A stretch of 64,000 bases of DNA from an uncultured Flavobacteriaceae bacterium (GTDB lineage: Bacteria > Bacteroidota > Bacteroidia > Flavobacteriales > Flavobacteriaceae), in the NCBI GenBank assembly GCA_938011315.1, contig CALLUG010000022.1, positions 1 to 64,000 of the forward strand, given 5' to 3'. This document shows, one piece after another, positions 20,474-36,731 of this stretch; within the stretch, counting starts at the first letter, position 1, and every line of letters starts with the position of its first letter. The position numbers and the translations under genes are program-made. The notes beneath the pieces were generated by a model, which did not search any database, was not told the origin of the DNA, and saw only the letters and a list, made by a program, of their open reading frames with translations.

Positions 20474-20923
20474 TTAGCCTAGCTTTTCTTTTACTAATTT
20501 AGAAATTGTTTTTCCGTCTGTTTTTCCTGCCAATACTTTACTTACAATCCCCATAACTTTGCCCATATCCTTCATACTTTCTGCACCCGTGTCTGCTATT
20601 GTTTGGCTCACTACTTTGCCAACTTCTTCTTCGCTTAAAGCTTCTGGCAAAAACTGGCTTACAATTTTTGCTTCTGCTAGTTCTGGTTCTGCTAAATCTT
20701 GTCGTCCTTGTTCTATGTATATAGCGGCACTATCTTTACGTTGTTTTAATTGTTTTTGAAGAATTTTTAATTCTTGACTTTCTGTTAATTCGCCTGAAGT
20801 ACCGTTAGCTGTTTTTTCTAACAGAATTGCCGATTTTATAGACCTCAACGCCGTTAATGCTGTTTGATCTTTTGCTTTCATCGCAACTTTCATTGCTGTC
20901 ATTAAATCACTCTGTAAACTCAT
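20474..20923 (-). CDS. GatB/YqeY domain-containing protein
   Basis: 149 residues, matching the stand-alone YqeY family. LQSDLMTAMKVAMKAKD, LRSIKSAI and the C-terminal MGKVMGIVSKVLAGKTDGKTISKLVKE are its typical segments. The fold is the tail domain of GatB, which handles mischarged tRNA, but the free-standing protein has no proven amidotransferase role. It follows ftsZ by 49 bases as the last protein gene of the dcw cluster. Confidence 0.9.
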   Translation of the reverse strand: MSLQSDLMTAMKVAMKAKDQTALTALRSIKSAILLEKTANGTSGELTESQELKILQKQLKQRKDSAAIYIEQGRQDLAEPELAEAKIVSQFLPEALSEEEVGKVVSQTIADTGAESMKDMGKVMGIVSKVLAGKTDGKTISKLVKEKLG

Positions 20924-20972
20924 TTTGAAAATGCTTGGTTTAAACTACGAATATATTATATTAATTTTTAAA

Positions 20973-22898
20973 TTAATCTACATTATCATGCAAAAAAGAA
21001 TTGTTTTCTCTTAGCTGTACGTCGTCATTATCATCTGTTGTAACAGATAGTCTTGAAATTTCTGTTGCTTCTGAGGAGTGTTTAGCTTCGTTTAAGTCGA
21101 CACCTTGTCGCTTATATGCAGGTTCTTTTTCTATGTCGTCAATTTTTGCATTATTAAATTTATAATTAAATTCTTTCATGCGTAACCGCCTTTGGTCTGC
21201 TCTCTCTTTTAGCACTTTAGATATTGAGCTATTCATGGGGTCCAATTCTTGATCTTCTTTTTCAGTTTCTGTTTTAGGAGTGTCATCAACAGTTTTTCTT
21301 TCAAAAACCATATTTTCGTCAGCTTCGATTATAAGTTCTTGTGTGGCTAACTGTTCTTTGGGCTTATTGTGATCTGTTGTAGGGCAATCGTCATCTAAAC
21401 TGTATTTTTTTTCTCCTTGTTCGTTTATTTCTGTAATAGGGACAAGCTCTGTATAATCGTTAACAGGAAGGTTTTTAATATCATCATTTAGGTCAAACGA
21501 CACTTTTTCTTCCTCCTCTTCTATTTTTTTAGCAGGCGCTATTGGTAAATCAAAAGTTAAGGTTGTTTGCTCTTCTTTTGCTATAGGCTCGTCAGTTTCA
21601 GGGTTATTGGAAACGTCATTGATAATGAGATCGTTTGTTTTTGCATTGTTAAAGATAATGTCTTCGTATTGTATTTCAATATTTCTAATGGCTTCAGTCA
21701 TGCTAATTAAGTCCATTTCTGGAGTGTCATTATCATCATTTAATACATGAATAATCTTAGGGTCTTTTTTATCTACTATTGTTTTATCTGTTACCGTCCT
21801 TGGTGTCGTTGTAGTAATTTCTTGCTCTGGGCTTAAGGTTTGTTTTGCTAAGGAAGTATCGTCTGTAAGTGAGTGGATTACTTTTTTTGTTTCGGTATTA
21901 GTAATTTCGTCTTGTTGATCTACATCAAAGCCTGTAGCGATAATAGTTACTGATATGGATTCTTCTAGGCTATCATCTTCTCCTACGCCCATAATAATAT
22001 TTGCTCCGTATCCTGCTTCTGTTTGAATATGGTCATTAATTTCCCCTATCTCGTCGATAGTAATTTCTTGTGAACCAGAGACAATGAGCAATAGTACATT
22101 TTTGGCTCCTGTAATTTTATTATCATTTAGCAACGGAGAGTCTAAGGCTTTCATAATTGCATCTTGAGCACGGTTAGATCCTGAAGCTGTTGAGGCTCCC
22201 ATAATAGCGGTTCCGCTATTGCTGAGTACTGTTTTGGCGTCTCTTAAATCTATATTTTGTGTATAGTGATGCGTAATAACTTCTGCAATACCTTTTGAGG
22301 CTGTTGCAAGGACTTCGTCTGCCTTAGAGAATCCTGCTTTAAAGCCAAGATTACCATATACTTCTCTTAGTTTGTTATTGTTTATCACAACCAACGAATC
22401 TACGTGAGCGCGTAGCGTTTCTACACCTATTGCTGCTTGTTGGTTACGTATTTTCCCTTCAAACAAAAATGGCATGGTTACAATACCTACGGTTAGGATA
22501 TCCAATTCTTTTGCTATTCGTGCAATAACGGGGGCTGCGCCTGTGCCGGTCCCGCCACCCATTCCTGCGGTAATGAATATCATTTTTGTATTGGTATTTA
22601 ACAGTTGTTTTATTTCGTCTAGGCTCTCTACTGCGGCTTGTTCTCCAATTTCCGGATTTGCTCCTGCTCCTAATCCTTCGGTAAGGTTTACGCCTAGTTG
22701 TATTTTATTGGGTACACCGCTATTTTGTAGGGCTTGGGCATCGGTATTGCATATTACAAAATCTACACCTTTAATCCCTTGCCTAAACATATGGTTAATA
22801 GCATTACTCCCGCCACCGCCAACGCCAATCACTTTTATGACATTAGATTTGTTTTTAGGTAAATCGAAGGTAATTCCAAAATCGTTATTGCTGCTCAT
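20973..22898 (-). CDS. ftsZ: Cell division GTPase FtsZ with long C-terminal linker
   Basis: The tubulin homologue that forms the division ring. The GTP-binding signature GGGTGTG is at residues 114-120, and the T7-loop region is intact. The conserved core ends at about residue 330. The following 300 or so residues are a poorly conserved, acidic, threonine-rich linker ending in a short tail (NNSFLHDNVD), which is likely the FtsA-binding peptide. The total of 641 residues is nearly twice the E. coli protein, but long forms are normal in Flavobacteriia. It lies 44 bases after ftsA. Confidence 0.98.
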   Translation of the reverse strand: MSSNNDFGITFDLPKNKSNVIKVIGVGGGGSNAINHMFRQGIKGVDFVICNTDAQALQNSGVPNKIQLGVNLTEGLGAGANPEIGEQAAVESLDEIKQLLNTNTKMIFITAGMGGGTGTGAAPVIARIAKELDILTVGIVTMPFLFEGKIRNQQAAIGVETLRAHVDSLVVINNNKLREVYGNLGFKAGFSKADEVLATASKGIAEVITHHYTQNIDLRDAKTVLSNSGTAIMGASTASGSNRAQDAIMKALDSPLLNDNKITGAKNVLLLIVSGSQEITIDEIGEINDHIQTEAGYGANIIMGVGEDDSLEESISVTIIATGFDVDQQDEITNTETKKVIHSLTDDTSLAKQTLSPEQEITTTTPRTVTDKTIVDKKDPKIIHVLNDDNDTPEMDLISMTEAIRNIEIQYEDIIFNNAKTNDLIINDVSNNPETDEPIAKEEQTTLTFDLPIAPAKKIEEEEEKVSFDLNDDIKNLPVNDYTELVPITEINEQGEKKYSLDDDCPTTDHNKPKEQLATQELIIEADENMVFERKTVDDTPKTETEKEDQELDPMNSSISKVLKERADQRRLRMKEFNYKFNNAKIDDIEKEPAYKRQGVDLNEAKHSSEATEISRLSVTTDDNDDVQLRENNSFLHDNVD

Positions 22899-22942
22899 AA
22901 GATTTTTTACTTTTTAATCTGTTATGTGTTTTATAATGAAAC

Positions 22943-24265
22943 TTACTCTGCGTTATCTAAAAAATCCTTAACACGGTGGGTAAGTTTATCTAAAAATGAT
23001 TTTCTTTCTTTTGTTTGTTTAACAGGATTTTCCTGAGTAACATTAGTATCTGTTGTATTGTTTATTGTTGTTTCGCTAACTTGTTTTTCTTGCGTATTTT
23101 TCTCTTTGGTTGCAATATCATCCATAACTAAACCAACGGCAGTAGCGTATAGTGGGCTTGTGATTTCTTGATCGCTATCACCTGCTAAATGCTCGTTAGG
23201 GTAGCCTACCCTTGTATCCATGCCTGTAATGTACTCTACTAATTGTTTTAAATGCTTTAATTGGCTACCGCCTCCAGTAAGTACAATTCCTGCAATTAGT
23301 TTTTTCTTTTGTTCTTCGTGACCGTAATTTTTAATTTCTACATATACCTGCTCTATAATTTCTACAATACGCGCATGTATAATTTTTGATAAATTTTTTA
23401 AGGTAATTTCCTTTGGTTCTCGGCCTCTTAAGCCTGGAATAGAAACAATTTCGTTATCTTTATTTTCTCCTGGCCATGCCGAGCCAAATTTGATTTTTAA
23501 CAACTCGGCTTGTTTTTCTATAATGGAGCAACCTTCCTTAATATCTTCGGTAATAACATTACCCCCAAAAGGGATAACGGCGGTATGTCTAATAATATCG
23601 TCTCTAAATATGGCTAAATCTGTTGTTCCGCCACCTATGTCTATTAGGGCTACTCCTGCTTCTTTCTCTTCTTGGCTTAGTACAGCGTTTGCAGAGGCTA
23701 AGGGTTCTAGGGTAATTCCTTCTAAATCTAACCCTGCACTTTTTACGCAGCGACCAATATTTCTAATTGATGGAACTTGCCCGACCACCACATGGAAATT
23801 GGCTTCTAACCTGCCACCGTACATCCCAATGGGTTCTTTAATTTCTGCTTGACCATCTACTTTGTATTCTTGTGGGAGTACATGAATAATTTCTTCTCCT
23901 GGAAGCATCACTAATTTATGAACTTGATTAATTAATCGTTCTATATCGTCTTCATCAATTACTAAGTCTGAGTTAGGTCGGGTAATGTAATCGCTGTGTT
24001 GTAAGCTTCTTATGTGTTGTCCTGCAATTCCTACAGTAACCCTTTCAATTTTTTGTCCTGAGGTCGTTTCTGCTTCTTGAACGGCTTGTTGTATCGATTG
24101 GATTGTTTGTGTAATATTATTAACCACACCTCGGTGTACACCAAGGCTTTTGGATTTACCAATACCAAGAATTTCTGCTTTAGCATATTCATTTTTTCGT
24201 CCAATCATTGCCACTATTTTTGTGGTGCCTATGTCCAATCCTACCGAAATATTGTTACTCTCCAT
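22943..24265 (-). CDS. ftsA: Cell division protein FtsA
   Basis: An actin-like ATPase that anchors FtsZ to the membrane. VGLDIGTTKIVAMIGR is the phosphate-1 loop, and ALIDIGGGTTDLAIF is phosphate 2. The SHS2/1C domain lies between, and the C-terminal KERKSFLDKLTHRVKDFLDN is the amphipathic membrane helix. I use the ATG at 24265 (440 residues, MESNNISVGLD), four bases after the ftsQ stop. An upstream in-frame ATG at 24301 would add 12 unconserved residues inside ftsQ. Confidence 0.96.
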   Translation of the reverse strand: MESNNISVGLDIGTTKIVAMIGRKNEYAKAEILGIGKSKSLGVHRGVVNNITQTIQSIQQAVQEAETTSGQKIERVTVGIAGQHIRSLQHSDYITRPNSDLVIDEDDIERLINQVHKLVMLPGEEIIHVLPQEYKVDGQAEIKEPIGMYGGRLEANFHVVVGQVPSIRNIGRCVKSAGLDLEGITLEPLASANAVLSQEEKEAGVALIDIGGGTTDLAIFRDDIIRHTAVIPFGGNVITEDIKEGCSIIEKQAELLKIKFGSAWPGENKDNEIVSIPGLRGREPKEITLKNLSKIIHARIVEIIEQVYVEIKNYGHEEQKKKLIAGIVLTGGGSQLKHLKQLVEYITGMDTRVGYPNEHLAGDSDQEITSPLYATAVGLVMDDIATKEKNTQEKQVSETTINNTTDTNVTQENPVKQTKERKSFLDKLTHRVKDFLDNAE

Positions 24266-24269
24266 TAGT

Positions 24270-24995
24270 TTACTTTTTTGTACACACAACTTGATTTTCA
24301 AATTGTAAATTCACTTTACTATAGCTATTTAACGACTTATCTTTTTTTGCTTTTTGATAAAACGCTTTTAGGTTATTTATTTTTTTATCTAAGGTTTCTA
24401 AATTTCCTATTAAAATTTCAAAATCGTATAATCTAGGTTTTAAAATAATCGTTTTATTTTTTTCTTGACGAATTTCAATAATATGTGTTTTTAAAAACGC
24501 ATCGTTATAAATTTTGTTTGCAATTACTGTTATATTTTTTAAATTATTTTTATCTATAATCCCTGTTGCTAAAGGAACTCTAGCGCTGTGGTTTTTAGAC
24601 AAAGGCATTTGCAAGCCATCTTCATCTATGTAATAAGACGTTGTACCGCTTACTCTTACTATTGGTTTTTTTTGAACGATATCTGCTTTAATTTCCCCAT
24701 TAATACTAAGGGAAACGTTTGCTGTTTTTATCATTGGATTAGATTTTAACCGCTGTTCTAATCTATTCAAATCTAAAGTTTCTTTAGCCACTCTCGGAGT
24801 ATCGTTCTTATTTTGTATTAACAATTTATTAACCGTTGTTTGACTAATAAATAAGTTTTCTTGACCATAAAAATTAACTACAATATCTGGTGATATTATC
24901 CTAGAGTTATTTCGGTTTGATGAAAACGAAAACAAGCCTCCTACCAGTAGTAGCAAACTTCCTGCTTTTATGTAATTCCAATTAATCTGCCGCAT
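24270..24995 (-). CDS. ftsQ: Cell division protein FtsQ
   Basis: 241 residues. A short cytoplasmic N-terminus, one membrane helix at about 10-25, then the periplasmic part with a POTRA-like beta domain (residues about 35-110) and the FtsQ domain (SARVPLATGII, VIANKIYND, RLYDFEILIGN). It links early and late divisome proteins. Its start lies inside the 3' end of murC (14-base overlap). The identification rests on both the sequence pattern and its place between murC and ftsA. Confidence 0.93.
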   Translation of the reverse strand: MRQINWNYIKAGSLLLLVGGLFSFSSNRNNSRIISPDIVVNFYGQENLFISQTTVNKLLIQNKNDTPRVAKETLDLNRLEQRLKSNPMIKTANVSLSINGEIKADIVQKKPIVRVSGTTSYYIDEDGLQMPLSKNHSARVPLATGIIDKNNLKNITVIANKIYNDAFLKTHIIEIRQEKNKTIILKPRLYDFEILIGNLETLDKKINNLKAFYQKAKKDKSLNSYSKVNLQFENQVVCTKK

Positions 24996-26334
24996 TTAAT
25001 TGTTCTTTAATTGAGCTTACCAATTCTCCTATATCACCTGCACCAAGAGTGATAATTACCTTGGCTTTACTTTTTTGTATTTCTGAAACAATGTTTGTTT
25101 TAGAAATTAATTTTTTATTTACGCTATGTATTTTATCTAACAACCACTGCGATGTAATGCCCTTGATAGGAGCCTCCCTTGCAGGGTAGATGTCTAACAA
25201 TAAAACGGTATCAAATTTAGATAGGCTTTCAGCAAATTGTTCTGCAAAATCTTTGGTACGACTATATAAGTGTGGTTGAAAAACAACTAACACTTCTGTA
25301 TTGGGATACATTTCTGATACAGCTTGGTGTACGGCATTAATTTCTTCTGGGTGGTGTGCATAATCGTCTATAAACACTAGCTCATCTGTTTTAATTTGAT
25401 AGGTGAATCGCCGTTTAACGCCCCTATATGATGCTAATGCTTTAGCAAGGGCATTGGGTAAGCAGCCAAACTCTATTGCCATCGCTATCGCAATTAACGC
25501 GTTTGATAAGTTGTGCCGACCAGGCAGACTAAACATAAAATCTTTATGGTATGTTGTAGGGGTTTTTATATCAAATAGGTAGCTCCCATTTTGTATTCTA
25601 ATGTTTGTTGCTGAGTAATCGGCATCGGCATCTACAGCATAAGTAATTCCAGAGAGAGGTAAGCCTTTTTTTATAAACAATTTGCCTTTAGGCTTTAGTT
25701 GTTTAGAAAAGGTTATGAATGATTTTTGTAATGTTTCGGCTGTTTTGTAGATGTCTAAATGATCGGCATCCATAGACGTAATGCAAGCATAGTCTGGCGA
25801 TAAGGCTAAAAACGATCTGTCAAACTCATCGGCTTCTACTACAGAAACTTTAGAGCCTTGAAGGATGAGGTTTGAATTGTAATTTTCTGAAATCCCCCCC
25901 AAAAAAGCAGTCATCTCCACTGCACATTCTTTAAGTAAATGACCCAAAATACTTGTTGTGGTTGTTTTGCCATGCGTTCCTGCTACAGCTAGACAAATTG
26001 TATGTTTTGTAATTATTCCTAATACCTCCGAGCGTTTTAAAACAGTAAAGTTTTTTTCTTGAAAATACAATAGCTCATTGTGAGTTCTAGGCACTGCAGG
26101 GGTATATACAATTAAGGTTGTTTTTGGATTTAAAAAACAAGATGCAATTTGCTTAACATCGTCGTTAAAGTGAATTGAAATCCCTAAAGTTTCTAAATCG
26201 TTGGTTATAGCCGTTTTGGTTTTATCATAACCAGCCACTTGTTTATTATTGGCTACAAAATAACGTGCTAATGCACTCATGCCGATACCGCCAATACCTA
26301 CAAAATAAACGTTATGAATGTTGCTTAAAGTCAT
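24982..26334 (-). CDS. murC: UDP-N-acetylmuramate--L-alanine ligase
   Basis: Adds L-alanine to UDP-MurNAc in the cytoplasm, using ATP. VGIGGIGMSALARYF at residues about 11-25 is the N-terminal UDP-binding motif, GTHGKTTTTSILG the ATP loop, and DDYAHHPEEI the conserved Mur ligase motif. At 450 residues it is of normal length. It sits 25 bases after murG and overlaps ftsQ by 14 bases. Confidence 0.98.
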   Translation of the reverse strand: MTLSNIHNVYFVGIGGIGMSALARYFVANNKQVAGYDKTKTAITNDLETLGISIHFNDDVKQIASCFLNPKTTLIVYTPAVPRTHNELLYFQEKNFTVLKRSEVLGIITKHTICLAVAGTHGKTTTTSILGHLLKECAVEMTAFLGGISENYNSNLILQGSKVSVVEADEFDRSFLALSPDYACITSMDADHLDIYKTAETLQKSFITFSKQLKPKGKLFIKKGLPLSGITYAVDADADYSATNIRIQNGSYLFDIKTPTTYHKDFMFSLPGRHNLSNALIAIAMAIEFGCLPNALAKALASYRGVKRRFTYQIKTDELVFIDDYAHHPEEINAVHQAVSEMYPNTEVLVVFQPHLYSRTKDFAEQFAESLSKFDTVLLLDIYPAREAPIKGITSQWLLDKIHSVNKKLISKTNIVSEIQKSKAKVIITLGAGDIGELVSSIKEQLNAAD

Positions 26335-26359
26335 AATAAAATTCTTGACACTATAATTA

Positions 26360-27454
26360 TTAATGTTTTAGAAGCTTTTCAACCTCATCAACAATATCTT
26401 TTGTAGCATTAACTAATGCTAATTTTTTAATGTTAACTCCTAACTGTTTTTGCTTTTCTTTTGAATTGATTAGTTCTGAAAATTTATTTTTAAAATCGGT
26501 TTCTAAATCGGTTTCTTTGATTAAAATTGCTGCATTTTTACTAACTATAGCATTAGCATTTTTGGTTTGATGATCTTCTGCAACATTAGGTGATGGGATA
26601 AACAATACAGGCTTACCAACAACACATAGCTCTGAAACTGAACTTGCCCCTGCCCTAGAGATAATAATGTCTGCCGCAGCATAGGCGGTGTCCATAGTGT
26701 CTAAAAATGAATGGACTTGAATATGATCTAAACTACTATATGTTTTGTACTCGTTGTAATAAAGTTTACCGCATTGCCAAATTAACTCTAGGTTTTGAGC
26801 CTCAAAAAAGGCGATGTTATCTTCAATTAATTGATTAATGCGTCTTGCGCCCAAACTACCCCCTAGTATTAATAATGTTTGTTTACTATGCTTTAGATTA
26901 AAATAATCTTTAGCACTAATTGTATTTTTGTTTACTGACAAAAAATCTTTACGCACTGGATTTCCTGTTTTTATTATTTTTTCTTTAGGAAAAAATTGTT
27001 CTAAACCATCGTAGGCTACGCAAATTGTGTTGGCAGTTTTAGAAAGAATTTTGTTGGTTATCCCAGGATAGGAATTTTGTTCTTGTATTAAACTAGGAAT
27101 TTTTTTTAAGGCTGCCATTTGTAGCAAAGGTCCGCTAGCAAATCCTCCTGTGCCAATAACAAGATTTGGAGTAAATTGCTTTAATAATCGTCTAGACTTA
27201 ATTAAGCTACTTAGCAGCTTAAAGGGAAAAATTATATTTTTTAGGCTAAGTTTTCGTTGAATTCCAGAGATCCACAGCCCTTCTATATTGTAACCTGCTT
27301 GTGGCACCTTTTCCATTTCCATCTTATTAAGCGCTCCAACAAATAAAAATTTTGTGTTTGGATAGCGCAATTTTATCTCGTTTGCAATAGCAATGGCAGG
27401 ATAAATATGCCCCCCTGTACCGCCTCCAGATAATATGATTTTGTAGTTGCTCAT
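26360..27454 (-). CDS. murG: Undecaprenyldiphospho-muramoylpentapeptide beta-N-acetylglucosaminyltransferase
   Basis: Converts lipid I to lipid II at the inner face of the membrane. The N-terminal glycine-rich loop [16 protein letters not shown] lies at residues about 9-24. The second conserved loop [11 protein letters not shown] and the UDP-GlcNAc site ([12 protein letters not shown]) are present. 364 residues. The start overlaps the ftsW stop by one base (TGATG), which implies translational coupling. Confidence 0.98.
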
Positions 27455-28647
27455 CAGATTGTTTTTCTTAATATATCAAGGGGATCAGTAGCCTTATTTT
27501 CTTTTGTTATTTTTTGATGTTTTACACTTACACTTAGCACAATACCTATAGATAGGCAAGTCATCCAAATAGACGTTCCTCCGCTACTAATAAGAGGGAG
27601 TGTTTGCCCTGTTACAGGAAATATTTCTACAGCAACCCCCATGTTAACTAAGGCTTGAAAAATAATTGGTAAGCCTACTCCAACAGCCAAAAGTTTTCCA
27701 AAAAAAGTATTTGATTTTTGTGAAACGATTAGAATTCTAAATAGCAGCCATAGATATAATGAGATTAATACGACTGCACCTAACAAGCCATACTCCTCAA
27801 TAATAATAGCAAAAATAAAATCGGAAGAGGATTGTGGCAAAAAGTTTTTTTGTTTACTTTTTCCAGGGCCTAAACCTCGTATGCCTCCAGAGGCTATTGC
27901 AATTTTTGCTTTTTCTATTTGGTAATTTGCTTTTGTGTCCTTACCGTTCATAAAACTTTCTATCCTGCTAGTCCAAGTATCAATTCTGTTAGGCATAGCC
28001 TTAGGATATGCCTTGGCTAGTAAGATAAATAGCGCTAATGTTAATGCTCCTGTTAGTAAAATTAAGCCTATATACCGTTTTGGATAGCCTCCCAAAAAGA
28101 CTAATACAATAACCATAAAAAAGATAAGTGCTGCTGTAGAGAAGTTTGCAGGCAAAATACACCCTAAAACCAAAAATACAGGAGTCCATAACGGAAAAAT
28201 ACTTTCTCGAAACGTAATTTTCTTTGCCTTAATTTTTGATAAGTATCGCGCTACATACACCATTAATACAACCGAGGCTAAGGTAGAAGGCTGAAATGTA
28301 AACCCAATAAAAGGGATGCGAATCCAACGCCTTGCATTGGTTAAACTTTCTGAGTTATCGCCCTGAAACATCGTTAAAGCTAAAAGCAATAAGACTACAG
28401 GAATCATAATTATCGATAAGCCCCTAAAATAACGATACGGAATTTTATGGACACTATACATAATTATAAATCCTAAAAGTAGGTGAACAAAGTGTTTTAT
28501 AAAAAATGCAAAGGTATTACTACCACCACCAATATAAGCTAAGTTACTGGCAGCACTATACACAGGCAAAAAAGACACTATAGCTAACAAAGTTGCTATT
28601 GCCCATATTAATTTATCGCCTTTAATTTTTTTTAATACTATCGTCAT
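27454..28647 (-). CDS. ftsW: Lipid II polymerase FtsW (SEDS family)
   Basis: The septal peptidoglycan glycosyltransferase of the SEDS family, partner of FtsI. About ten membrane helices are visible, with the SEDS motif PLISSGGTS near the C-terminus and the conserved [23 protein letters not shown] loop in the middle third. I use the ATG at 28647 (397 residues, [15 protein letters not shown]). An upstream in-frame ATG at 28680 would add 11 unconserved residues. Confidence 0.96.
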
Positions 28648-28689
28648 ATTACAAAAACTAGATCTTAGCTCTAGATACACTATTATTTT

Positions 28690-30030
28690 TTACAACTGTC
28701 GTATGGCAGCCTTAAATTGGTTTCCTCTATCTTCATAATTTTTAAATAAATCAAAACTTGCACATGCAGGCGATAGCAATACGTTGTCGCCTGCCTTAGC
28801 TATATTATAAGCAATTTTAATAGCCTCACTCATGTATTCGGTTTCTACAATAACATCGACCATATTTGCAAAATTTGCAAATAGCTTTTCATTATTGACT
28901 CCTAAGCATATAATTGCTTTTACTTTTTCGTTTACAAAAGGAAATAATTCGGTATAATCATTGCCTTTGTCTTCGCCGCCAACAATCCAAACTGTAGGAG
29001 CGTCCATACTCTCTAAAGCAAAATATGTTGCGTTTACATTTGTTGCCTTAGAGTCGTTGATGTACTGTACTTTATTAATACGAAGCACATGTTCTAAACG
29101 ATGTTCAACACCTTCAAAATTTTCTAAGCTTTCTCTTATCGTATTTTTTCTTATTTTAAGTAAGTGTGACACGGTTGAGGCTGCCATGGCGTTTTTAACA
29201 TTGTGTTGTCCTCTTAAAGCAATTGTATTGGTAGGCATAATGATTTGAGTATTATCTATAGTTATTTGTATGTTTTTATGTTTTAAGCAAGCTCCATTTT
29301 CAATATGTTTTGTTACAGAAAATGGGAGTAATCTTGATTTTATGGGATGAGACTTTAAGTAGTTTTCTATCACGCTATCATCGGCATCATAAATTAAATA
29401 GTCGTCTTGTGTTTGGTTTTTTGTTATTCTAAACTTTGAAGCAATATAGTTTTCAAAATTATAATCGTATCGGTCTAGATGGTCTGGAGTTATATTGGTA
29501 ATAACAGCAATATGTGGTGCAAATGTTTGTATGCCATCCAGCTGAAAGCTGCTAAGTTCTAGCACATAGTGATCAAAATGATGATTTGCAACGCTCCTAG
29601 CAAAACTGTCGCCAATATTACCTGCTTTTTCTACATTTAATCCTGCTTTCTTTAAAATATGGTGCGTTAGTGCGGTGGTCGTGGTTTTTCCGTTACTTCC
29701 TGTAATTCCTATAGTGTTAGCATCGGTATATTTTGATGCAAATTCTATTTCTGAAATTACTGGAATTCCTTTTTTTATAAGCTTTTGTACTAGGGGTGCT
29801 TGGTCAGGTATTCCGGGGCTTTTCACAACAGTAGTTGCTGTTGTAATTTGGGATTCTGTATGTTGTCCTTCCTCCCATTTAATAGTGTTATTTATGAGGC
29901 TTTTTTTGTAATTATAACTAATCTTTCCTTGGTCAGAAACAAAAACTTCAAATCCCTTTTGTTTAGCCAAAAGCGCTGCACCTACACCACTCTCACCTGC
30001 ACCTAGTATTGTTAGTTTTTGTTTTTTCAT
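28690..30030 (-). CDS. murD: UDP-N-acetylmuramoyl-L-alanine--D-glutamate ligase
   Basis: Adds D-glutamate to UDP-MurNAc-L-Ala. LGAGESGVGAALLA at the N-terminus binds the UDP part, GITGSNGKTTTTALTHH is the ATP loop, and INDSKATNVNATYFAL is the conserved C-terminal region. At 446 residues it is full length. It starts 30 bases after the mraY stop and ends 42 bases before the chosen ftsW start. Confidence 0.98.
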   Translation of the reverse strand: MKKQKLTILGAGESGVGAALLAKQKGFEVFVSDQGKISYNYKKSLINNTIKWEEGQHTESQITTATTVVKSPGIPDQAPLVQKLIKKGIPVISEIEFASKYTDANTIGITGSNGKTTTTALTHHILKKAGLNVEKAGNIGDSFARSVANHHFDHYVLELSSFQLDGIQTFAPHIAVITNITPDHLDRYDYNFENYIASKFRITKNQTQDDYLIYDADDSVIENYLKSHPIKSRLLPFSVTKHIENGACLKHKNIQITIDNTQIIMPTNTIALRGQHNVKNAMAASTVSHLLKIRKNTIRESLENFEGVEHRLEHVLRINKVQYINDSKATNVNATYFALESMDAPTVWIVGGEDKGNDYTELFPFVNEKVKAIICLGVNNEKLFANFANMVDVIVETEYMSEAIKIAYNIAKAGDNVLLSPACASFDLFKNYEDRGNQFKAAIRQL

Positions 30031-30060
30031 TTGTAGTTTAAATTGGTGTACTTGTTTTGT

Positions 30061-31299
30061 TTATCGTATTTTTAGTGTTACCACAGATAGTATTGCTAAT
30101 AATATTCCTACAATCCAAAAACGTGTTACTATTTTACTTTCATGGTACCCAGATTTTTGATAATGGTGGTGTAAGGGCGACATTTTAAAAATACGTCGTC
30201 CCACACCAAATTTTTTGCGCGTGTACTTGAAGTAGCCTACCTGTAATACTACGGATAAGTTTTCTGCTAAAAATATACCGCACAGTAAAGGGATTAGCCA
30301 CTCCTTACGTATTGCAATTGCAATTACGGCAATAATACCTCCTATCGTTAGGCTACCGGTATCTCCCATAAACACTTGAGCAGGGTAAGTATTGTACCAC
30401 AAAAACCCTATTAATGCACCTACAAAAGCTGCAATGTAGATGGTAATTTCTCCAGCTCTAGGGATGTACATAATGCTTAGGTAATCTGAAAAAATAATAT
30501 TACTCGACACATAAGCAAATATGCCGAGGGTTAATACAATTATAGCCGAAGAACCAGCTGCCAAACCATCAATACCATCTGTAAGATTGGCGCCGTTAGA
30601 AACGGCAGTAATAATAAAGATAACAACGAGTATAAAAATAACCCAAGTGTACTTGGATAAACTAGGGTGAATCCAAGTTATTAAATCGGCATAGTCAAAC
30701 TCATTTGCTTTAATAAATGGGAGTGTTGTTTTTGTAGACTTTATTTCTGATTGATGCTTAAAAGCGTCTACTTTAGATACACTAGAGCTTAGGTTTTCTT
30801 GCTGAACTATTGAAGGCTGTTCTTTTATGGTAATTTCGCTGTGTAAAAATAATGTTGCCCCAACAATAATACCTAAGCCTACTTGCCCTAAAACTTTAAA
30901 CTTTCCTTTTAAACCTTCTTTATTATTTTTAAACTTCTTAATATAGTCATCAATAAAACCAATAAACCCCATCCATATGGTTGTAATTATAAGTAAAAGG
31001 ATATAAATATTTTCTAGCTTAGCAAAAAGCAACACAGGGATTAAAGTTGCTATAATAATAATAATCCCTCCCATTGTAGGCGTTCCTGCTTTTTCGGTTT
31101 GACCCTCTAGACCTAAATCTCTTATGGTTTCGCCTACTTGTTTTTTTGTTAAAAACGAAATGATACGTTTTCCGTAAATTGTAGAAATTAACAACGAAAA
31201 CATCATAGCCATCGCAACCCTAAAGGAGATATAACCAAACAAGGATGCTCCAGGTAGCTGGAATTGATTTTCTAAATATTCAAACAAATAGTATAGCAT
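30061..31299 (-). CDS. mraY: Phospho-N-acetylmuramoyl-pentapeptide transferase
   Basis: An integral membrane enzyme making lipid I from UDP-MurNAc-pentapeptide and undecaprenyl phosphate. [34 protein letters not shown] and the C-terminal [14 protein letters not shown] are the classic MraY motifs, including the catalytic aspartates and the His triad. At 412 residues it is longer than the 360 of E. coli, because of a poorly conserved loop of about 45 residues at 168-212. Bacteroidota MraY proteins generally have this loop. One base separates it from murE. Confidence 0.98.
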
Positions 31300-31300
31300 A

Positions 31301-32761
31301 TTATGAGTGTCGTTGTTTTAGGAATTCTTTTACTATTTTGTAATCATCAAAGTCATTGCGTACACCATTGATTTCTTGGTAAGTTTCATGCCCTTTACCC
31401 GCAATGAGTATAATGTCTTTCGGTTTTGCTAATTGACAGGCTGTTTTTATGGCTTGTTTTCGATCTAGAATACTTATTGTTTTTTTGTAATATTGAGGTT
31501 CTACTCCAGCTTCCATTTGTTCTATAATTGTATTGGGATTTTCTGTTCTAGGATTATCGCTAGTAAAAACTACTTTAGAGCTTAAATGAGATGCAATATT
31601 TGCCATTACAGGACGCTTTGTTTTATCACGGTCTCCCCCACAACCTACTACAGTAATTAAAGTTTCGTTTTTTGTACGAATGGTATTTATGGTTTGCAGT
31701 ACATTTTTTAGAGCATCGGGGGTATGTGCATAATCTACAATAGCTGTAATTTGGTTTTCAATGACGTACTGAAATCTTCCGCTAACGTTTTGTAAATCAC
31801 TAATTAATCGTAATATTTCTACAGTTTCTAAACCTAATAAGTTTGCCGTAGCATAAATTGCTAATAAATTATAGGCATTAAAATTGCCTATTAACTTGGT
31901 CCAAACGTCATGGTTATTTATGTTTAATAAGAGCCCACTAAACTGGTTTTCTAAAATTTTGGCTCTGTAATCGGCATAGGTTTTTAGGGCATAAGTATAG
32001 GGCTTTGAAACTGTATTTTGCAGCATATACGCCCCATTTTTATCATCGATATTTGCTAAAGAAAATGCTGTTTTGGGCAGCTGGTCAAAAAACTGTTTTT
32101 TTACATCTCTATATTCTGCAAATGTGCTATGATAGTCTAAATGATCTTGCGAGAGGTTAGTAAAAATTCCTCCTGCAAACTGCAATCCCTCTGTTCGGTT
32201 TTGATGAATCCCATGAGAGCTTACTTCCATAAAGCAAAACGTAACCCCTTCGCTTAGCATTTGGTTTAGATAGTTATTTATACTAACAGAATTTGGGGTG
32301 GTGTGTGTGGCTTTATAAATTTTATTATGAACTGCAATTTTAACGGTTGAAAGCAAACCGACCTTATGTCCTGCGTTTTTAAATAATTGATACAATAAAC
32401 TCGCTACTGTCGTTTTGCCATTAGTACCAGTAACCCCAACTAATTTTAATTTTTCTGAAGGATTATCGTAATAATTTGCCGCCATTATAGCCAGGGCTTT
32501 GCTAGAACTTTCTACGGCGATATAGCTTATACCATCTATTTTTTGCTCCGGAATAGTTTCGCAAACTATAGCGGTTGCTCCTTGCTGTATTGCAGTGGTT
32601 ATATAATTATGCCCATCTACTTCCGTGCCTTTAATGGCTATAAAAACATCATTTTTTTGCACATTTCTAGAATCAAAATGCAAACGGTTAACGCTTATAG
32701 TTGTATGCCCTACAACAGCGTTAAGAGTTACCTTATACAATATGTTTTTTAAGAGCATCAT
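31301..32761 (-). CDS. murE: UDP-MurNAc-tripeptide synthetase
   Basis: Adds the third stem-peptide residue. [17 protein letters not shown] is the ATP loop. The segment SDNPRTENP is the DNPR motif that marks meso-diaminopimelate as substrate, in agreement with a Gram-negative wall. 486 residues. The start overlaps the ftsI stop by four bases (ATGA). Two adjacent ATG codons (MM) are possible starts and differ by one residue. Confidence 0.97.
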
Positions 32762-34761
32762 GACAACTCCAATACAATTAGCTGATTTTTATTTAGTTTA
32801 ATTCCTTTTGCAACAGATTGTGTTTTTACGTTTCCACGACCTATTAGTTTTACTGTTACTCCCATATTTTCTAGTAGGGCAACAGCGTCCATAGCTGGCA
32901 TCCCTTTTAGGTTGGGCATAATGGTTTTGTATGTTTGTGCTACGTTATAGTACTTATCGTAGTTTTCTAGAGCGGCAGTGTTTTTCGTTTCTAGGTTTTC
33001 TATAGTGTCAACTACGGGAGTATCTGAATATATTTTTTGTGCTATTTTTTTAAATACAGGTGCTGCAACAACGCTGCCGTAATATCCAATATTTTTGTCT
33101 GGTTTATGAATTACTACAATACAGGAGTATTCAGGGTTTTTTGCAGGAAAATATCCAGCAAAGGATGCAATATACAGACCGGGTTGTTTCCAGTATTCTG
33201 TTTGGCAAGTTCCTGTTTTGCCCGCCATTGAAAAACTAGGAGTGTATATGTTATGTGCTGTTCCATGCTTTTTTTCTACAACATTTTCCATCATTTTTTG
33301 GACTTTTTTTGCTGTTTCTACACTGCAAATAGAGGGGTTAATAATTTCTTTTTTGAAAGGAATTATAGTGTTATCAAATTCTTTTACTTCTTTTAAAAAT
33401 CGTGGCTTTACCATTTCGCCATTATTAGCAATAGCATTGTAAAAGGTTAGGGTTTGCAGTGGGGTTAATGCTACACCGTAACCAAAAGCCATCCACGGTA
33501 GGTCTAGACCGTCCCAGTTTTTACTATCGGAAGGGTGTGTAATTAAAGGAGTGCCTTCGCCTATAATAGGGAGTTGCAATGAGTTGTTTAAACCCATTTT
33601 GTAAAGTCTATCTACAAATTTTGAAGGGTTATTTTTATAATTATTAGTTATTAACTTTACTAAACCTGTATTTGAAGACACCTCAAAAGCTTCCGATGCC
33701 GATAGTTTCCCATAACCGCCTTTTTGGGAATCTCTTACGTTTCTTCCGTAAAATGTAAGCACTCCTTTTTCTGTATCTACAACATCGCTAGTATCAATTA
33801 CCTTATCTTCTAGAGCCGCTACCATAGCCATTAGCTTAAAGGTGGATCCTGGTTCGTGGCTTTCGCCTACGGCGTAATTAAGTTTTTCGTAATATGTTCC
33901 TTTTGATGTGCGCCCAAGATTAGAAATTGCCTTAATCTCTCCTGTTTTAGTTTCCATAACAACAACACTACCATGGTCTGCTTTAAATTTTTCTAGTTGC
34001 CATAATAAAGCGTGGTGTGCAATATCTTGTATATTTACATCAATGGTCGTATATACATCGTAGCCATCTTTGGGTTCTATTTGATTATTATCATTAATGG
34101 GTTTCCATTGTCCTTTTCCTATTTTTTGTTTTAACCGCCTGCCGTTTCTACCTCTTAAATATTCTTCACCAAAAGCGCCATCAATGCCGGGACGTGTAAG
34201 ATTTCCATTTTTATCTTTACGTTCATACCCAATAGTACGCTCTGCAATGCCGCCCATAGGGTGTTCTCGTTTGGTATTTTGCTCTACAATTAGACCGCCC
34301 TTAAAAGGGCCTAACTTTAGGAGTGGAAATTTTTTAAATCTTAGATAATCGGAATACCCTAAATTTCTTGCTAACAAAAGGTATCTATTTCTATTAACTC
34401 TTGCTTTTCGTATAGCGCGCTGGTAGTGTCCTTTGGGTTTATTATGGTAACGTGCTAAAGAGTCGTCTAGTGCACTAATATATTTTTCGAAATGGCGTTC
34501 TGAAATGGTCAAAGCATCAATTCTGATATCATACTTAGGCACTGAAGTGGCTAATAAGCTACCATCTGCAGAGTACACATTACCTCTGTTGGCGGGAATG
34601 GTAACGTTTTCTATAGTTCGTTTGTTTGCAAGATTACGGTATTTATCTCCTTCAATAAATTGAATTTTTGTGAGTTTAAAAATTACCAAAAACGCAAATA
34701 CAAATAGACATGCTACTACAAAATATAAACGATTTAATATGTTTTTTTCTTTAGCTGACAA
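32758..34761 (-). CDS. ftsI: Septal penicillin-binding protein FtsI (PBP3) with one PASTA domain
   Basis: The septal transpeptidase. Residues 12-30 form the single membrane anchor. The dimerisation/pedestal domain follows, then the transpeptidase domain with the active-site SxxK (STFK, 306-309), SSN and KTG (MAGKTGTCQTEY). The last 60 residues form a PASTA domain (MPNLKGMPAMDAVALLENMG). At 667 residues it is a typical flavobacterial FtsI. It is flanked by ftsL (4 bases) and murE (4-base overlap). Confidence 0.97.
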   Translation of the reverse strand: MSAKEKNILNRLYFVVACLFVFAFLVIFKLTKIQFIEGDKYRNLANKRTIENVTIPANRGNVYSADGSLLATSVPKYDIRIDALTISERHFEKYISALDDSLARYHNKPKGHYQRAIRKARVNRNRYLLLARNLGYSDYLRFKKFPLLKLGPFKGGLIVEQNTKREHPMGGIAERTIGYERKDKNGNLTRPGIDGAFGEEYLRGRNGRRLKQKIGKGQWKPINDNNQIEPKDGYDVYTTIDVNIQDIAHHALLWQLEKFKADHGSVVVMETKTGEIKAISNLGRTSKGTYYEKLNYAVGESHEPGSTFKLMAMVAALEDKVIDTSDVVDTEKGVLTFYGRNVRDSQKGGYGKLSASEAFEVSSNTGLVKLITNNYKNNPSKFVDRLYKMGLNNSLQLPIIGEGTPLITHPSDSKNWDGLDLPWMAFGYGVALTPLQTLTFYNAIANNGEMVKPRFLKEVKEFDNTIIPFKKEIINPSICSVETAKKVQKMMENVVEKKHGTAHNIYTPSFSMAGKTGTCQTEYWKQPGLYIASFAGYFPAKNPEYSCIVVIHKPDKNIGYYGSVVAAPVFKKIAQKIYSDTPVVDTIENLETKNTAALENYDKYYNVAQTYKTIMPNLKGMPAMDAVALLENMGVTVKLIGRGNVKTQSVAKGIKLNKNQLIVLELS

Positions 34762-34765
34762 GGGT

Positions 34766-35083
34766 CTAGTTTTGTGATTTTACCTTAATTTTTTTTGGGG
34801 GTATGCTAGAGGGTTTTAATCCTTTTTGCGCCATTTTTTTCATAATTGCTGTTTCCATTTTTAATTTCATCAAAATGGTTCTGCCATCTATCATTTCTGA
34901 TCTTAATGCCTTTACTTGCTCATTAAGTCTTGCAATATCATACACTTTTTTATCTGCACTATGAGAGCTCGCAATCATTATAATAGCTAAAAACAAAACA
35001 AACAGAATGCTTTTCCAGTACTTAAACGAATCGTCGTTTATTAAAAACGACCCTCTTAGTATGTTATACAATCTTTCTTTCAT
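34766..35083 (-). CDS. ftsL: FtsL-like cell division protein
   Basis: 105 residues: a basic cytoplasmic N-terminus of about 25, one membrane helix at about 26-43 (ILFVLFLAIIMIASSHS), and a short coiled coil rich in leucine and charged residues (NEQVKALRSEMIDGRTILMKL). The sequence is weakly conserved. The call depends on topology and on its place between rsmH and ftsI, where the FtsL of this phylum is always found. Confidence 0.85.
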   Translation of the reverse strand: MKERLYNILRGSFLINDDSFKYWKSILFVLFLAIIMIASSHSADKKVYDIARLNEQVKALRSEMIDGRTILMKLKMETAIMKKMAQKGLKPSSIPPKKIKVKSQN

Positions 35084-35087
35084 AGTG

Positions 35088-35993
35088 TTAAATACGTTCT
35101 GCTATCCTTAATTTTGCGCTTCTAGCTCTGTTGTTTATACTAATTTCTTCTTGTGTTGGAACAATTAGTTTTCCTACATTCTTAAAAGGCACAGTTACGT
35201 TACCATAAATATCTTTTTCTGGCTCACCTTCAAACAAGCCACTTCGCATATAACGTTTTACCAACCTATCTTCTAAGGAATGATAAGAAATTACACTTAA
35301 TCTTCCTTTGGGTTTTAATAGTGCTTCGCTTTGTTGCAAAAAACTTTTTAGCACTTCTATTTCTTGATTTACCTCTATCCTAATAGCCTGATATATTTGG
35401 GCTAGTAGCTTGTTTTCTTTTCTTGGGGGAAGAAATTTTTTGACTATTTCTTTCAGTTCGTTGGTTGTTTTTACGGGCTTATGTTTTCTTTCTTCTACAA
35501 TAGTTCGTGCCAGTAAAGGTGCCTGTCTTAGCTCGCCATATTCCCAAAACATTTGTCGCAAATCAGCTTCTTTGTATTGGTTGATGATATGAAAAGCCGA
35601 AGACGCTTCATTTTGATTCATTCGCATATCCAAATTTGCATCAAAACGAATTGAAAAACCTCGCTCCGGAACATCAAATTGGTGAGATGAAACACCAAAG
35701 TCTGCTAAAATACCATCTACAGTTACTACACCATGGAATCGCAAAAATCGTTTTGTATGTCTAAAATTTTCTTGTATTAAAACAAATCTATTGTCGTCAA
35801 TCTTGTTTAAAGCAGCGTCTTTATCTTGATCAAAGGCAAATAACTTGCCTTTACTTCCTAAACGTTTTAAAATTTCTTTGCTATGTCCGCCACCGCCAAA
35901 AGTTACATCAACATATACGCCATTTGGGTTAATATTTAACCCATCTACGGTTTCTTTTAACAATACAGGGTTATGATATTCCATCACTTTCAT
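35088..35993 (-). CDS. rsmH: 16S rRNA (cytosine-1402-N4)-methyltransferase
   Basis: SAM-dependent methyltransferase for C1402 of 16S rRNA. YHNPVLLKETVDGL is the conserved N-terminus, VDVTFGGGGHSKEIL the SAM-binding loop, and SYHSLEDRLVKRYM the C-terminal catalytic motif. The start at 35993 lies inside mraZ (23-base overlap). An ATG three codons downstream (35984) gives the more usual N-terminus MEYHNPVLL and is equally possible. Confidence 0.96.
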   Translation of the reverse strand: MKVMEYHNPVLLKETVDGLNINPNGVYVDVTFGGGGHSKEILKRLGSKGKLFAFDQDKDAALNKIDDNRFVLIQENFRHTKRFLRFHGVVTVDGILADFGVSSHQFDVPERGFSIRFDANLDMRMNQNEASSAFHIINQYKEADLRQMFWEYGELRQAPLLARTIVEERKHKPVKTTNELKEIVKKFLPPRKENKLLAQIYQAIRIEVNQEIEVLKSFLQQSEALLKPKGRLSVISYHSLEDRLVKRYMRSGLFEGEPEKDIYGNVTVPFKNVGKLIVPTQEEISINNRARSAKLRIAERI

Positions 35994-36441
35994 CGTCTTG
36001 TCCCATTACGTCCTCGGCTAAATCGGCAAAATCTAGAGTAGCGTCGTCAATGGCTTGTTCGTACTTATTTTTGTCCCATATTTCTAAAATGTCGATAGAT
36101 GAGGACACTACAACATCTTTAGAAATTCCAGAAAACACAATCAAATCTTTAGGAACTAATAGCCGTCCGGAAGCATCTACTTCTACAATTTTTAATCCCG
36201 CCGTAAAACGTCTAATGAAGTCATTATTCTTTTTTTTAAATCGGTTTAGCTTGTTTACTTTTTGCATTAATTTTTCCCACTCTTGCATAGGATAAAGTTC
36301 TAAGCAAGGTTGAAAAACAGCACGTTTTAATACAAAGCCATTTTGCAGTATTGGTGCTAACTGTTTTTTTAGGGCAGCGGGGAGCATTAGCCGTCCTTTA
36401 GCATCTGCCTTGCATTCGTATGTTCCAATGAGTGCGTTCAA
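35971..36441 (-). CDS. mraZ: Transcriptional regulator/division protein MraZ, TTG start
   Basis: 156 residues with two SpoVT-AbrB-like halves; GTYECKADAKGRLMLPAALKKQL and VEVDASGRLLVPKDL are the two DxxGR motifs. MraZ binds DNA repeats upstream of its own gene and controls the dcw operon. The only plausible start is TTG at 36441: reading upstream in frame, no ATG or GTG occurs before a stop codon. Upstream lie a TAATTTTG promoter element and three AAAGTG boxes (separate entries). Confidence 0.95.
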   Translation of the reverse strand: MNALIGTYECKADAKGRLMLPAALKKQLAPILQNGFVLKRAVFQPCLELYPMQEWEKLMQKVNKLNRFKKKNNDFIRRFTAGLKIVEVDASGRLLVPKDLIVFSGISKDVVVSSSIDILEIWDKNKYEQAIDDATLDFADLAEDVMGQDDESDGIS

Positions 36442-36469: not shown

Positions 36470-36477
36470 CAAAATTA
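36470..36477 (-). promoter_or_regulatory. Promoter -7 element of the dcw cluster
   Basis: On the minus strand TAATTTTG fits TAnnTTTG, 28 bases upstream of the mraZ start. No TTG lies 17-23 bases further upstream; that zone is occupied by the AAAGTG boxes. Confidence 0.5.
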
Positions 36478-36489
36478 ATTAAATTATTG

Positions 36490-36515
36490 CACTTTTTACC
36501 ACTTTATGACACTTT
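36490..36515 (-). promoter_or_regulatory. Three AAAGTG direct repeats, candidate MraZ operator
   Basis: Minus-strand AAAGTG occurs at 36515-36510, 36505-36500 and 36495-36490, each separated by exactly four bases. Mollicute MraZ is reported to bind AAAGTG[T/G] boxes with short spacers, and E. coli MraZ binds TGGGN repeats with the same 10-bp period. Here the boxes abut the TAATTTTG element, as expected for an operator covering the promoter. Confidence 0.7.
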
Positions 36516-36702
36516 GTTGATAAGTTTATTGAAAATCTCTGTCCTAAAACAAGTCTAAGCAATCTGCTAATTTTTATTAGGTTAGGTTAAAAACAACTTT
36601 AACTCACGATTATTTTGCAGCTTGTTTTGTGCTTTTAGCTTATTTAAAAAGCTAGATAATCTTCATTATTTACGAAAAACTGTTTTTATGAAAAAGCAAA
36701 TA

Positions 36703-36731
36703 TTGTAACTTAAATAAATTATGTAGATTTG
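36703..36731 (+). promoter_or_regulatory. Promoter of the alpha/beta hydrolase-engB pair
   Basis: TTG at 36703-36705, an 18-bp spacer and TAGATTTG at 36724-36731, a full match to the flavobacterial consensus. The ATG at 36760 is 28 bases beyond the box. Confidence 0.65.

What the first reader, a model, noticed from the sequence alone, without database searches (positions are those of the whole stretch)
36470..36515. AAAGTG triplet upstream of mraZ: MraZ operator shared with Mollicutes
Three AAAGTG boxes at exact 10-bp period sit directly upstream of the TAATTTTG promoter element of mraZ. The Mollicute MraZ box was described as AAAGTG[T/G] with short spacers. The same sequence in a Bacteroidota dcw cluster points to a very old, conserved autoregulation that covers all 14 downstream protein genes.
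Basis: partly seen in the sequence, partly recalled or inferred. Interest (0 to 1): 0.55.

Follow-up and report, generated by a model that had tools for sequence, protein, structure and literature searches.

The report
MraZ operator with DnaA-box-like neighbour
The three AAAGTG repeats are the switch through which the MraZ protein probably controls its own cell-division operon, and beside them sits a conserved DNA word that resembles the binding site of the replication starter DnaA, hinting that replication and division genes may be wired together in this group of bacteria.

Summary
Observation confirmed: AAAGTG at 36510-36515, 36500-36505 and 36490-36495 (minus strand), exact 10-bp period, 48 bp before the mraZ TTG start, the only 0-mismatch triple in its genome. 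It is an MraZ operator; such arrays recur across the class, and E. coli mraZ has the same GTGG core at 10 bp, so it is no special Mollicutes link. Directly 5' of box 1, sharing one base, is TTATCAACA (36515-36523). TTWTYMACA/TTWTNCACA occurs upstream of mraZ in 153 of 171 class genomes (shuffles 20) and 71 of 74 hold-out loci (shuffles 8); forward copies keep the MraZ register (120 of 128 within one base modulo 10), and the -7 element starts 18-19 bp after the last box in 101 of 165. It persists in 15 of 39 rsmH loci without mraZ, where MraZ arrays are gone (0 of 39). The same A/C-tolerant 9-mer is enriched upstream of dnaA in one family. Best reading: composite MraZ plus DnaA-like control element of the dcw operon. 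MraZ part near certain; DnaA identity likely, unproven: the window's 9-mer misses the strict DnaA consensus by one base.

The parts
36515..36523 (-). TTATCAACA, DnaA-box-like 9-mer; its last A is the first A of MraZ box 1
   Evidence: conserved across the class and in register with the boxes; misses TTWTNCACA at position 6 (A for C)
36506..36515 (-). MraZ box 1, AAAGTGTCAT
36496..36505 (-). MraZ box 2, AAAGTGGTAA (like the class matrix)
36486..36495 (-). MraZ box 3, AAAGTGCAAT (departs from AAAGTG[T/G])
36470..36477 (-). TAATTTTG, -7 promoter element of Bacteroidota type (TAnnTTTG, recalled consensus), 18 bp after first A of box 3
   Evidence: in relatives 18-19 in 101 of 165 genomes
35971..36441 (-). 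mraZ, TTG start, 156 aa, with DAKGR and DASGR motifs
20474..35993 (-). rest of dcw cluster: rsmH, ftsL, ftsI, murE, mraY, murD, ftsW, murG, murC, an ORF in the ftsQ place, ftsA, ftsZ, yqeY-like
   Evidence: the ORF at 24270-24995 has no Pfam match and is called ftsQ by synteny only; which Mur ligase is which (31301-32761, 28690-30030, 24982-26334) is assigned by gene order

Best explanation
The AAAGTG triplet is the MraZ operator of the dcw operon, embedded in a composite element: [DnaA-box-like 9-mer][three MraZ boxes at 10 bp][-7 promoter element]. MraZ, a ring-shaped oligomer (recalled), binds the three boxes on one face of the helix just upstream of the -7 element and represses its own operon by excluding RNA polymerase. 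A second factor, most likely DnaA, binds the abutting 9-mer on a fixed helical face next to MraZ box 1 and competes or cooperates with MraZ, making dcw transcription sensitive to replication-initiator level or state. Shown: sequence anatomy, conservation, phasing, retention of the 9-mer after loss of mraZ. Inferred: MraZ binding, DnaA identity, direction of regulation.
For: One 0-mismatch triple in the genome. MraZ arrays: 73 of 74 protein-selected hold-out loci have at least 2 boxes in register; arrays are gone where mraZ is gone (0 of 39 against 31 of 36). 9-mer: 153 of 171 genomes, shuffles 20.4 sd 4.5, max 32; without the 18 genomes that entered through the box pattern 138 of 153; TTWTYMACA alone 149 of 171, none of 500 column-permuted motifs reaches it (mean 7.7, max 108); hold-out 71 of 74 (shuffles 8.1, max 17) and strict TTWTNCACA 39 of 74 (shuffles 4.1, max 10). 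Abutting position in 74 of 162 anchored genomes, 26 of 55 families. Register 120 of 128 within one base modulo 10, per-family Rayleigh p 4e-13 over 41 families. 9-mer kept in 15 of 39 mraZ-less loci (shuffles 3.8, max 9). Upstream of dnaA in 30 genomes of one family, position 6 = A 46 (shuffle 8.0), C 18 (3.1), G 2 (2.2), T 6 (5.0), the same A/C preference as at mraZ (A 157, C 48, T 15, G 12). Literature: DnaA binds the ftsL promoter region in B. subtilis (PMC8203912, passages); E. coli MraZ binds a site overlapping the mioC DnaA box (PMC4446571, passages).
Against: No binding data. The window's 9-mer fails the strict DnaA consensus at position 6. Of the 6 dnaA promoters read in the window's family f1, 5 (and G199 of f68) show TTRTTCACA, with C at 6 (by eye). 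The dnaA-side enrichment comes from one family, f41; in the 30-genome survey the other families show no such cluster, and 6 of the 30 f41 loci have no 9-mer. No oriC was located in the window's family; the three-direct-box search hit 1 of 18 genomes. 18 of 171 genomes lack the 9-mer, including G134 of the window's own family. Reverse-orientation copies show no common phase (20 families, p 0.39). 24 of 39 mraZ-less and 14 of 36 mraZ+ rsmH loci lack it. In E. coli the DnaA boxes in ftsQA play no role in ftsZ transcription; in B. subtilis RsmH and PbpB of the ftsL operon did not change on initiation arrest, FtsL itself not being detected.
Confidence: 0.65

Rival explanations
1. Plain MraZ autoregulation: the 9-mer is only an extension of the MraZ operator (flanking contact or bend) and DnaA plays no part.
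For: The 9-mer abuts box 1 in a fixed phase; the DnaA box read on its other strand (TGTGGATAA) shares GTGG with the MraZ box, and E. coli MraZ binds over a DnaA box.
Against: 9-mer kept in 15 of 39 mraZ-less loci with no array left; 40 MraZ loci of other Bacteroidota classes have the 9-mer in only 6, in none forward and abutting box 1; many hold-out loci carry strict copies in reverse orientation some distance away.
Confidence: 0.17
2. The 9-mer is the site of another, unknown conserved regulator or nucleoid protein, not DnaA.
For: Position 6 is usually A, outside the DnaA consensus TTWTNCACA (quoted); dnaA promoters of the window's family carry the C form.
Against: Variable positions 3 and 5 and fixed positions 1, 2, 4, 7-9 match the DnaA box; strict boxes in 39 of 74 hold-out loci; A and C forms both enriched upstream of dnaA in one family; DnaA residue 435 differs with the form used.
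Confidence: 0.15
3. The 9-mer binds DnaA but as a titration or reservoir site; it does not regulate the operon.
For: DnaA boxes away from oriC can act as titration sites (general knowledge).
Against: Fixed phase to the MraZ boxes and fixed distance from these to the -7 element point to a promoter function.
Confidence: 0.1
4. Chance AT-rich repeats.
For: Single AAAGTG is not enriched.
Against: Conservation and phase tests.
Confidence: 0.01

Closest known systems
MraZ boxes of Mollicutes (Fisunov et al. 2016; paper not held, quoted in PMC8475190)
   Same: AAAGTG direct repeats upstream of mraZ; single site in the genome (said of M. genitalium)
   Different: Third box here is AAAGTGC; a DnaA-box-like 9-mer abuts the array and the promoter is of the Bacteroidota -7 type
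MraZ boxes of E. coli mraZ (Eraso et al. 2014; paper not held, cited; sequence L094)
   Same: GTGG core repeats at 10 bp upstream of mraZ and the dcw cluster
   Different: In E. coli, and by eye in many of 40 non-Bacteroidia Bacteroidota loci, the boxes follow a -35/-10 pair; here they lie upstream of the -7 element. No abutting DnaA-like box in the E. coli stretch printed (by eye)
DnaA-bound ftsL promoter region of B. subtilis (Goranov et al. 2005, quoted in PMC8203912)
   Same: DnaA linked to the promoter region of the operon that carries mraZ (that this operon begins with mraZ/yllB is recalled)
   Different: Different phylum; a fixed composite with MraZ boxes is not mentioned in the passages I saw
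mioC promoter of E. coli (PMC4446571 passages)
   Same: MraZ site overlapping a DnaA box
   Different: Not the dcw operon

Membership tests
MraZ operator | Direct repeats with GTG core at 10 bp upstream of mraZ | tested here: met
   exact 10-bp triple; 48 bp between box 3 and the TTG start
MraZ operator | Mollicute heptamer AAAGTG[T/G] in every box | tested here: inconclusive
   Boxes 1 and 2 fit, box 3 is AAAGTGC
MraZ operator | Cognate MraZ with both domains | tested here: met
   PF02381 2.3e-27, two stretches
MraZ operator | Site depends on presence of MraZ in evolution | tested here: met
   Array in 0 of 39 rsmH loci without mraZ upstream and 31 of 36 with it
MraZ operator | Physical binding of MraZ | not testable with these tools
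   No binding data
DnaA box | Strict consensus TTWTNCACA | tested here: not met
   Window has TTATCAACA, one mismatch. Some relatives meet it: 41 of 171 (shuffles 9.5), 39 of 74. Hence called DnaA-box-like, not filed as a DnaA box
DnaA box | Same word used near dnaA in the class | tested here: inconclusive
   Enriched in family f41 (30 of 61 genomes read), but not in the other families; family f1 dnaA promoters show TTRTTCACA
DnaA box | DnaA binding | not testable with these tools
   No binding data
Bacteroidota promoter | -7 TAnnTTTG (recalled) | tested here: met
   TAATTTTG 36477-36470
Bacteroidota promoter | -33 TTG (recalled) | tested here: not met
   No TTG about 19-21 nt before TAATTTTG in the stretch printed (by eye); MraZ boxes occupy it

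The most novel reading that the evidence does not exclude
In this class the replication initiator DnaA and the division regulator MraZ share one phase-locked composite operator on the whole dcw operon, a direct replication-to-division switch; when mraZ is lost the DnaA arm often stays. DnaA's own box has drifted from C to A at position 6 together with residue 435 of its recognition helix (T to A/S), so the class has a relaxed DnaA code: taking the 9-mer nearest the MraZ array, A435 goes with A6 in 18 and C6 in 2 genomes, S/T435 with C6 in 5 and A6 in 2, while 3 S/T435 genomes have none near the array (Fisher 0.0047 by genome, 0.006 by family; found after looking at the data and not corrected for phylogeny).
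Probability: 0.4. Interest if true: 0.8.

Novelty: new variant of a known kind. Interest (0 to 1): 0.6.

Why it matters
How bacteria couple replication initiation to division-gene expression is open; [quoted passage not shown] A class-wide composite of a DnaA-like box and MraZ boxes in fixed register on the dcw promoter makes that coupling directly testable in Bacteroidota, and could add a DnaA box with an altered code.

Tried and rejected
Single AAAGTG hexamer count: not enriched, so only the periodic triple is evidence. Composite 15-mer TTWTYMACAAWGTGG as a genome-wide marker: 172 of 395 genomes match, but the reversed-pattern control also matches in many, so it is not specific; in the window's own genome its one forward hit (C13:4880) is not at mraZ, whose box 1 reads GTGT. 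Three direct 9-mers in a row as oriC marker: 1 of 18 genomes. Sigma-70 promoter scan of the cluster: 64 found against 62 in shuffles, uninformative. Nine literature searches: among the listed titles and abstract beginnings I saw none that describes an MraZ operator in Bacteroidota or this composite; the library holds only open-licence papers, and the two founding MraZ papers are not in it. Of the papers used I saw passages only; one search found none of four gene names in PMC4447404.

Dropped rows and bias: 3 loci of 2 genomes (L025 and L054 for G057, L069 for G233) were dropped as partial before the 171-genome count; G057 was read later for only. 18 of the 171 genomes entered through the three-box pattern search (4 of them, G135, G195, G041 and G101, were also fetched independently); without the 18 the 9-mer count is 138 of 153. 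The hold-out had 76 loci, 2 dropped for short upstream. One search used only arrays with two or more GTGG-like cores, so the window's own array (GTGT, GTGG, GTGC) is not in its counts; its value of 18 comes. The -7 search there spanned 37 bp, its background 24-bp windows. In 'mraZ-less' means no mraZ within about 1.5 kb upstream of rsmH; the genomes had no PF02381 match at all; of its 19 loci the partial L243 was left out. One of 31 dnaA loci was too short. Of 81 non-class genomes with mraZ, 40 were read. Genomes are related, so p-values are optimistic. Names: families f1, f33, f41 and so on are unnamed in the tool; that the class is Bacteroidia is inferred (FtsL_2 match; titles of the hold-out; GTDB placement recalled).

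Full report
1. The observation. AAAGTG stands three times on the minus strand at 36515-36510, 36505-36500 and 36495-36490, exact 10-bp period, followed by TAATTTTG at 36477-36470 and the TTG start of mraZ at 36441. AAAGTG alone is not over-represented (37 against 56 in shuffles); the periodic triple is, and it occurs once at 0 mismatches in the 2.25-Mb genome. The gene is MraZ (PF02381, 2.3e-27, two stretches), first of a 14-gene dcw cluster running to 20474 with gaps of at most 49 bp.

2. MraZ boxes across the class. In 198 genomes of the class mraZ is found in 180 and the three-box pattern with up to 2 mismatches in 106. Of the 20 genomes with a listed 0-mismatch match (the list was cut), 17 have it next to mraZ (positions compared by eye, and locus L035); for 3 (G161, G044, G143) no mraZ position was listed. 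In a hold-out of 74 named Bacteroidota loci selected by protein, 73 have at least two boxes in register. The class unit resembles AAAGTGGTAA (matrix). E. coli mraZ has the same core at 10 bp (L094).

3. The overlooked neighbour. Reading the upstream regions side by side showed a 9-mer directly 5' of box 1: TTATCAACA in the window, TTATTAACA, TTTTCAACA, TTATCCACA or TTTTCCACA elsewhere. Within 180 bp upstream of mraZ, TTWTYMACA or TTWTNCACA on either strand occurs in 153 of 171 genomes (shuffles 20.4, sd 4.5, max 32), and the strict E. coli-type box TTWTNCACA in 41 (shuffles 9.5, sd 3.0, max 16). Without the 18 genomes that came in through the box pattern it is 138 of 153. Against 500 column permutations of TTWTYMACA, searched in the real sequences, none reaches the real 149 (mean 7.7; the best, 108, look like pieces of the MraZ box or of the 9-mer's flank). 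Hold-out: 71 of 74, and strict 39 of 74 (shuffles 8.1 and 4.1). With arrays anchored without use of the 9-mer, it sits with its last A as the first A of box 1 in 74 of 162 genomes, 26 of 55 families.

4. Phase and promoter. 95 of 128 forward 9-mers lie at phase 0 of the MraZ register (modulo 10) and 120 within one base of it; one value per family gives Rayleigh p 4e-13 over 41 families. Reverse-oriented copies show no common phase (20 families, p 0.39). The -7 element TAnnTTT[GA] begins 18-19 bp after the first A of the last box in 101 of 165 genomes, at other distances in 37, none in 27; 1.8% of 24-bp windows further upstream hold one. The window has 18 (its own array was not among the 165). 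In 40 loci from other Bacteroidota classes (40 of 81 such genomes with mraZ) MraZ boxes can be seen, by eye in many of them after a sigma-70 -35/-10 pair, as in E. coli; the 9-mer occurs in 6 of 40, in none forward and abutting box 1. Thus boxes upstream of the -7 element plus an abutting 9-mer look like an arrangement of this class.

5. Does the 9-mer belong to MraZ? In 75 rsmH loci, 36 have mraZ upstream (array of at least 2 boxes in 31, 9-mer in 22) and 39 do not (array in 0, 9-mer in 15; shuffles 3.8, sd 1.8, max 9). MraZ boxes go with mraZ; the 9-mer can stay. Against this, 24 of the 39 lack it (among them genomes of 0.3-0.6 Mb and loci where another gene abuts), and so do 14 of the 36 mraZ+ loci, 11 of these from one family (f33).

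6. Is it a DnaA box? For: degenerate positions 3 and 5 and the fixed positions agree with TTWTNCACA; upstream of dnaA in 30 genomes of family f41 (30 of the 61) the same word is enriched with A (46 against 8.0) and C (18 against 3.1) at position 6 but not G (2 against 2.2) or T (6 against 5.0); 24 of the 30 have at least one. At mraZ position 6 is A 157, C 48, T 15, G 12. DnaA domain IV has A or S where E. coli has T435 in all but 2 of the genomes aligned (G035 and G110 keep T; P423 is changed in all); helix 434-451 reads the TnCACA half and T435M is defective in box binding (PMC5742627, passage). Taking the 9-mer nearest the array, A435 goes with A6 in 18 and C6 in 2 genomes, S/T435 with C6 in 5 and A6 in 2; G188, G014 and G110 (S, S, T) have none near the array (Fisher 0.0047, by family 0.006). 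In the window's family four A435 genomes besides the window's own (G263, G194, G255, G350) use A6 and the one S435 genome, G165, uses C6. This was noticed after the fact and is not corrected for phylogeny. Against: the strict consensus is missed in this window; 5 of 6 dnaA promoters read in family f1 show TTRTTCACA (by eye); families other than f41 show no cluster at dnaA; no oriC was located in the window's family; no binding data.

7. Mechanism. MraZ on the three boxes would cover the region just upstream of the -7 element and repress its operon, as in E. coli and M. genitalium where MraZ is reported as a repressor (PMC8475190, passages). A protein on the 9-mer would sit on a fixed face next to box 1, so competition or cooperation with MraZ is expected. 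DnaA binding at the B. subtilis ftsL promoter region and MraZ over the mioC DnaA box in E. coli are precedents for both links; in B. subtilis, however, RsmH and PbpB of that operon did not change on initiation arrest. The direction of a DnaA effect cannot be inferred from sequence.

8. Verdict. MraZ operator: known kind, new member (about 0.95). Conserved composite element: shown by sequence. DnaA as its second partner: about 0.7 as a binding site, less as a regulator.

Noticed in passing
window 36724-36731 (+): TAGATTTG, a -7-type element about 30 bp before the ATG of the divergent alpha/beta-hydrolase gene (36760), over 200 bp from the MraZ boxes; the divergent gene probably has its own promoter.
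   Followed up: no
L322-L361 (other Bacteroidota classes): By eye, MraZ boxes often placed after the -35/-10 elements, unlike the window's class: the operator seems to have moved relative to the promoter between classes.
   Followed up: partly
L362-L389 (dnaA upstream, family f41): Conserved 7-mers ACATCGA/GAACATC, ACTTGTA, ATATTCG upstream of dnaA, top of the k-mer enrichment list, unexplained.
   Followed up: no
L211, L216, L217, L219, L220, L222: dnaA promoters of the window's family (and G199) share TTRTTCACA a few bases before a TTTG motif (by eye), suggesting DnaA autoregulation with a C6 box; L221 (G194) does not show it.
   Followed up: no
G157:C119:6048, 8102, 10132: AAAGTATAGAAAAGTGTAGAAAAGTC-like triple recurring about every 2 kb on a contig other than the one with mraZ.
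   Followed up: no
L037 (G064:C4:12876): A second three-box array (AAAGGG, AAAGTG, AAAGTG at 10 bp) in a genome that also has one elsewhere (C59:183228).
   Followed up: no
family f33 loci: mraZ present in some and missing in other members of one family; several mraZ+ members lack the 9-mer while several mraZ-less ones keep it.
   Followed up: partly
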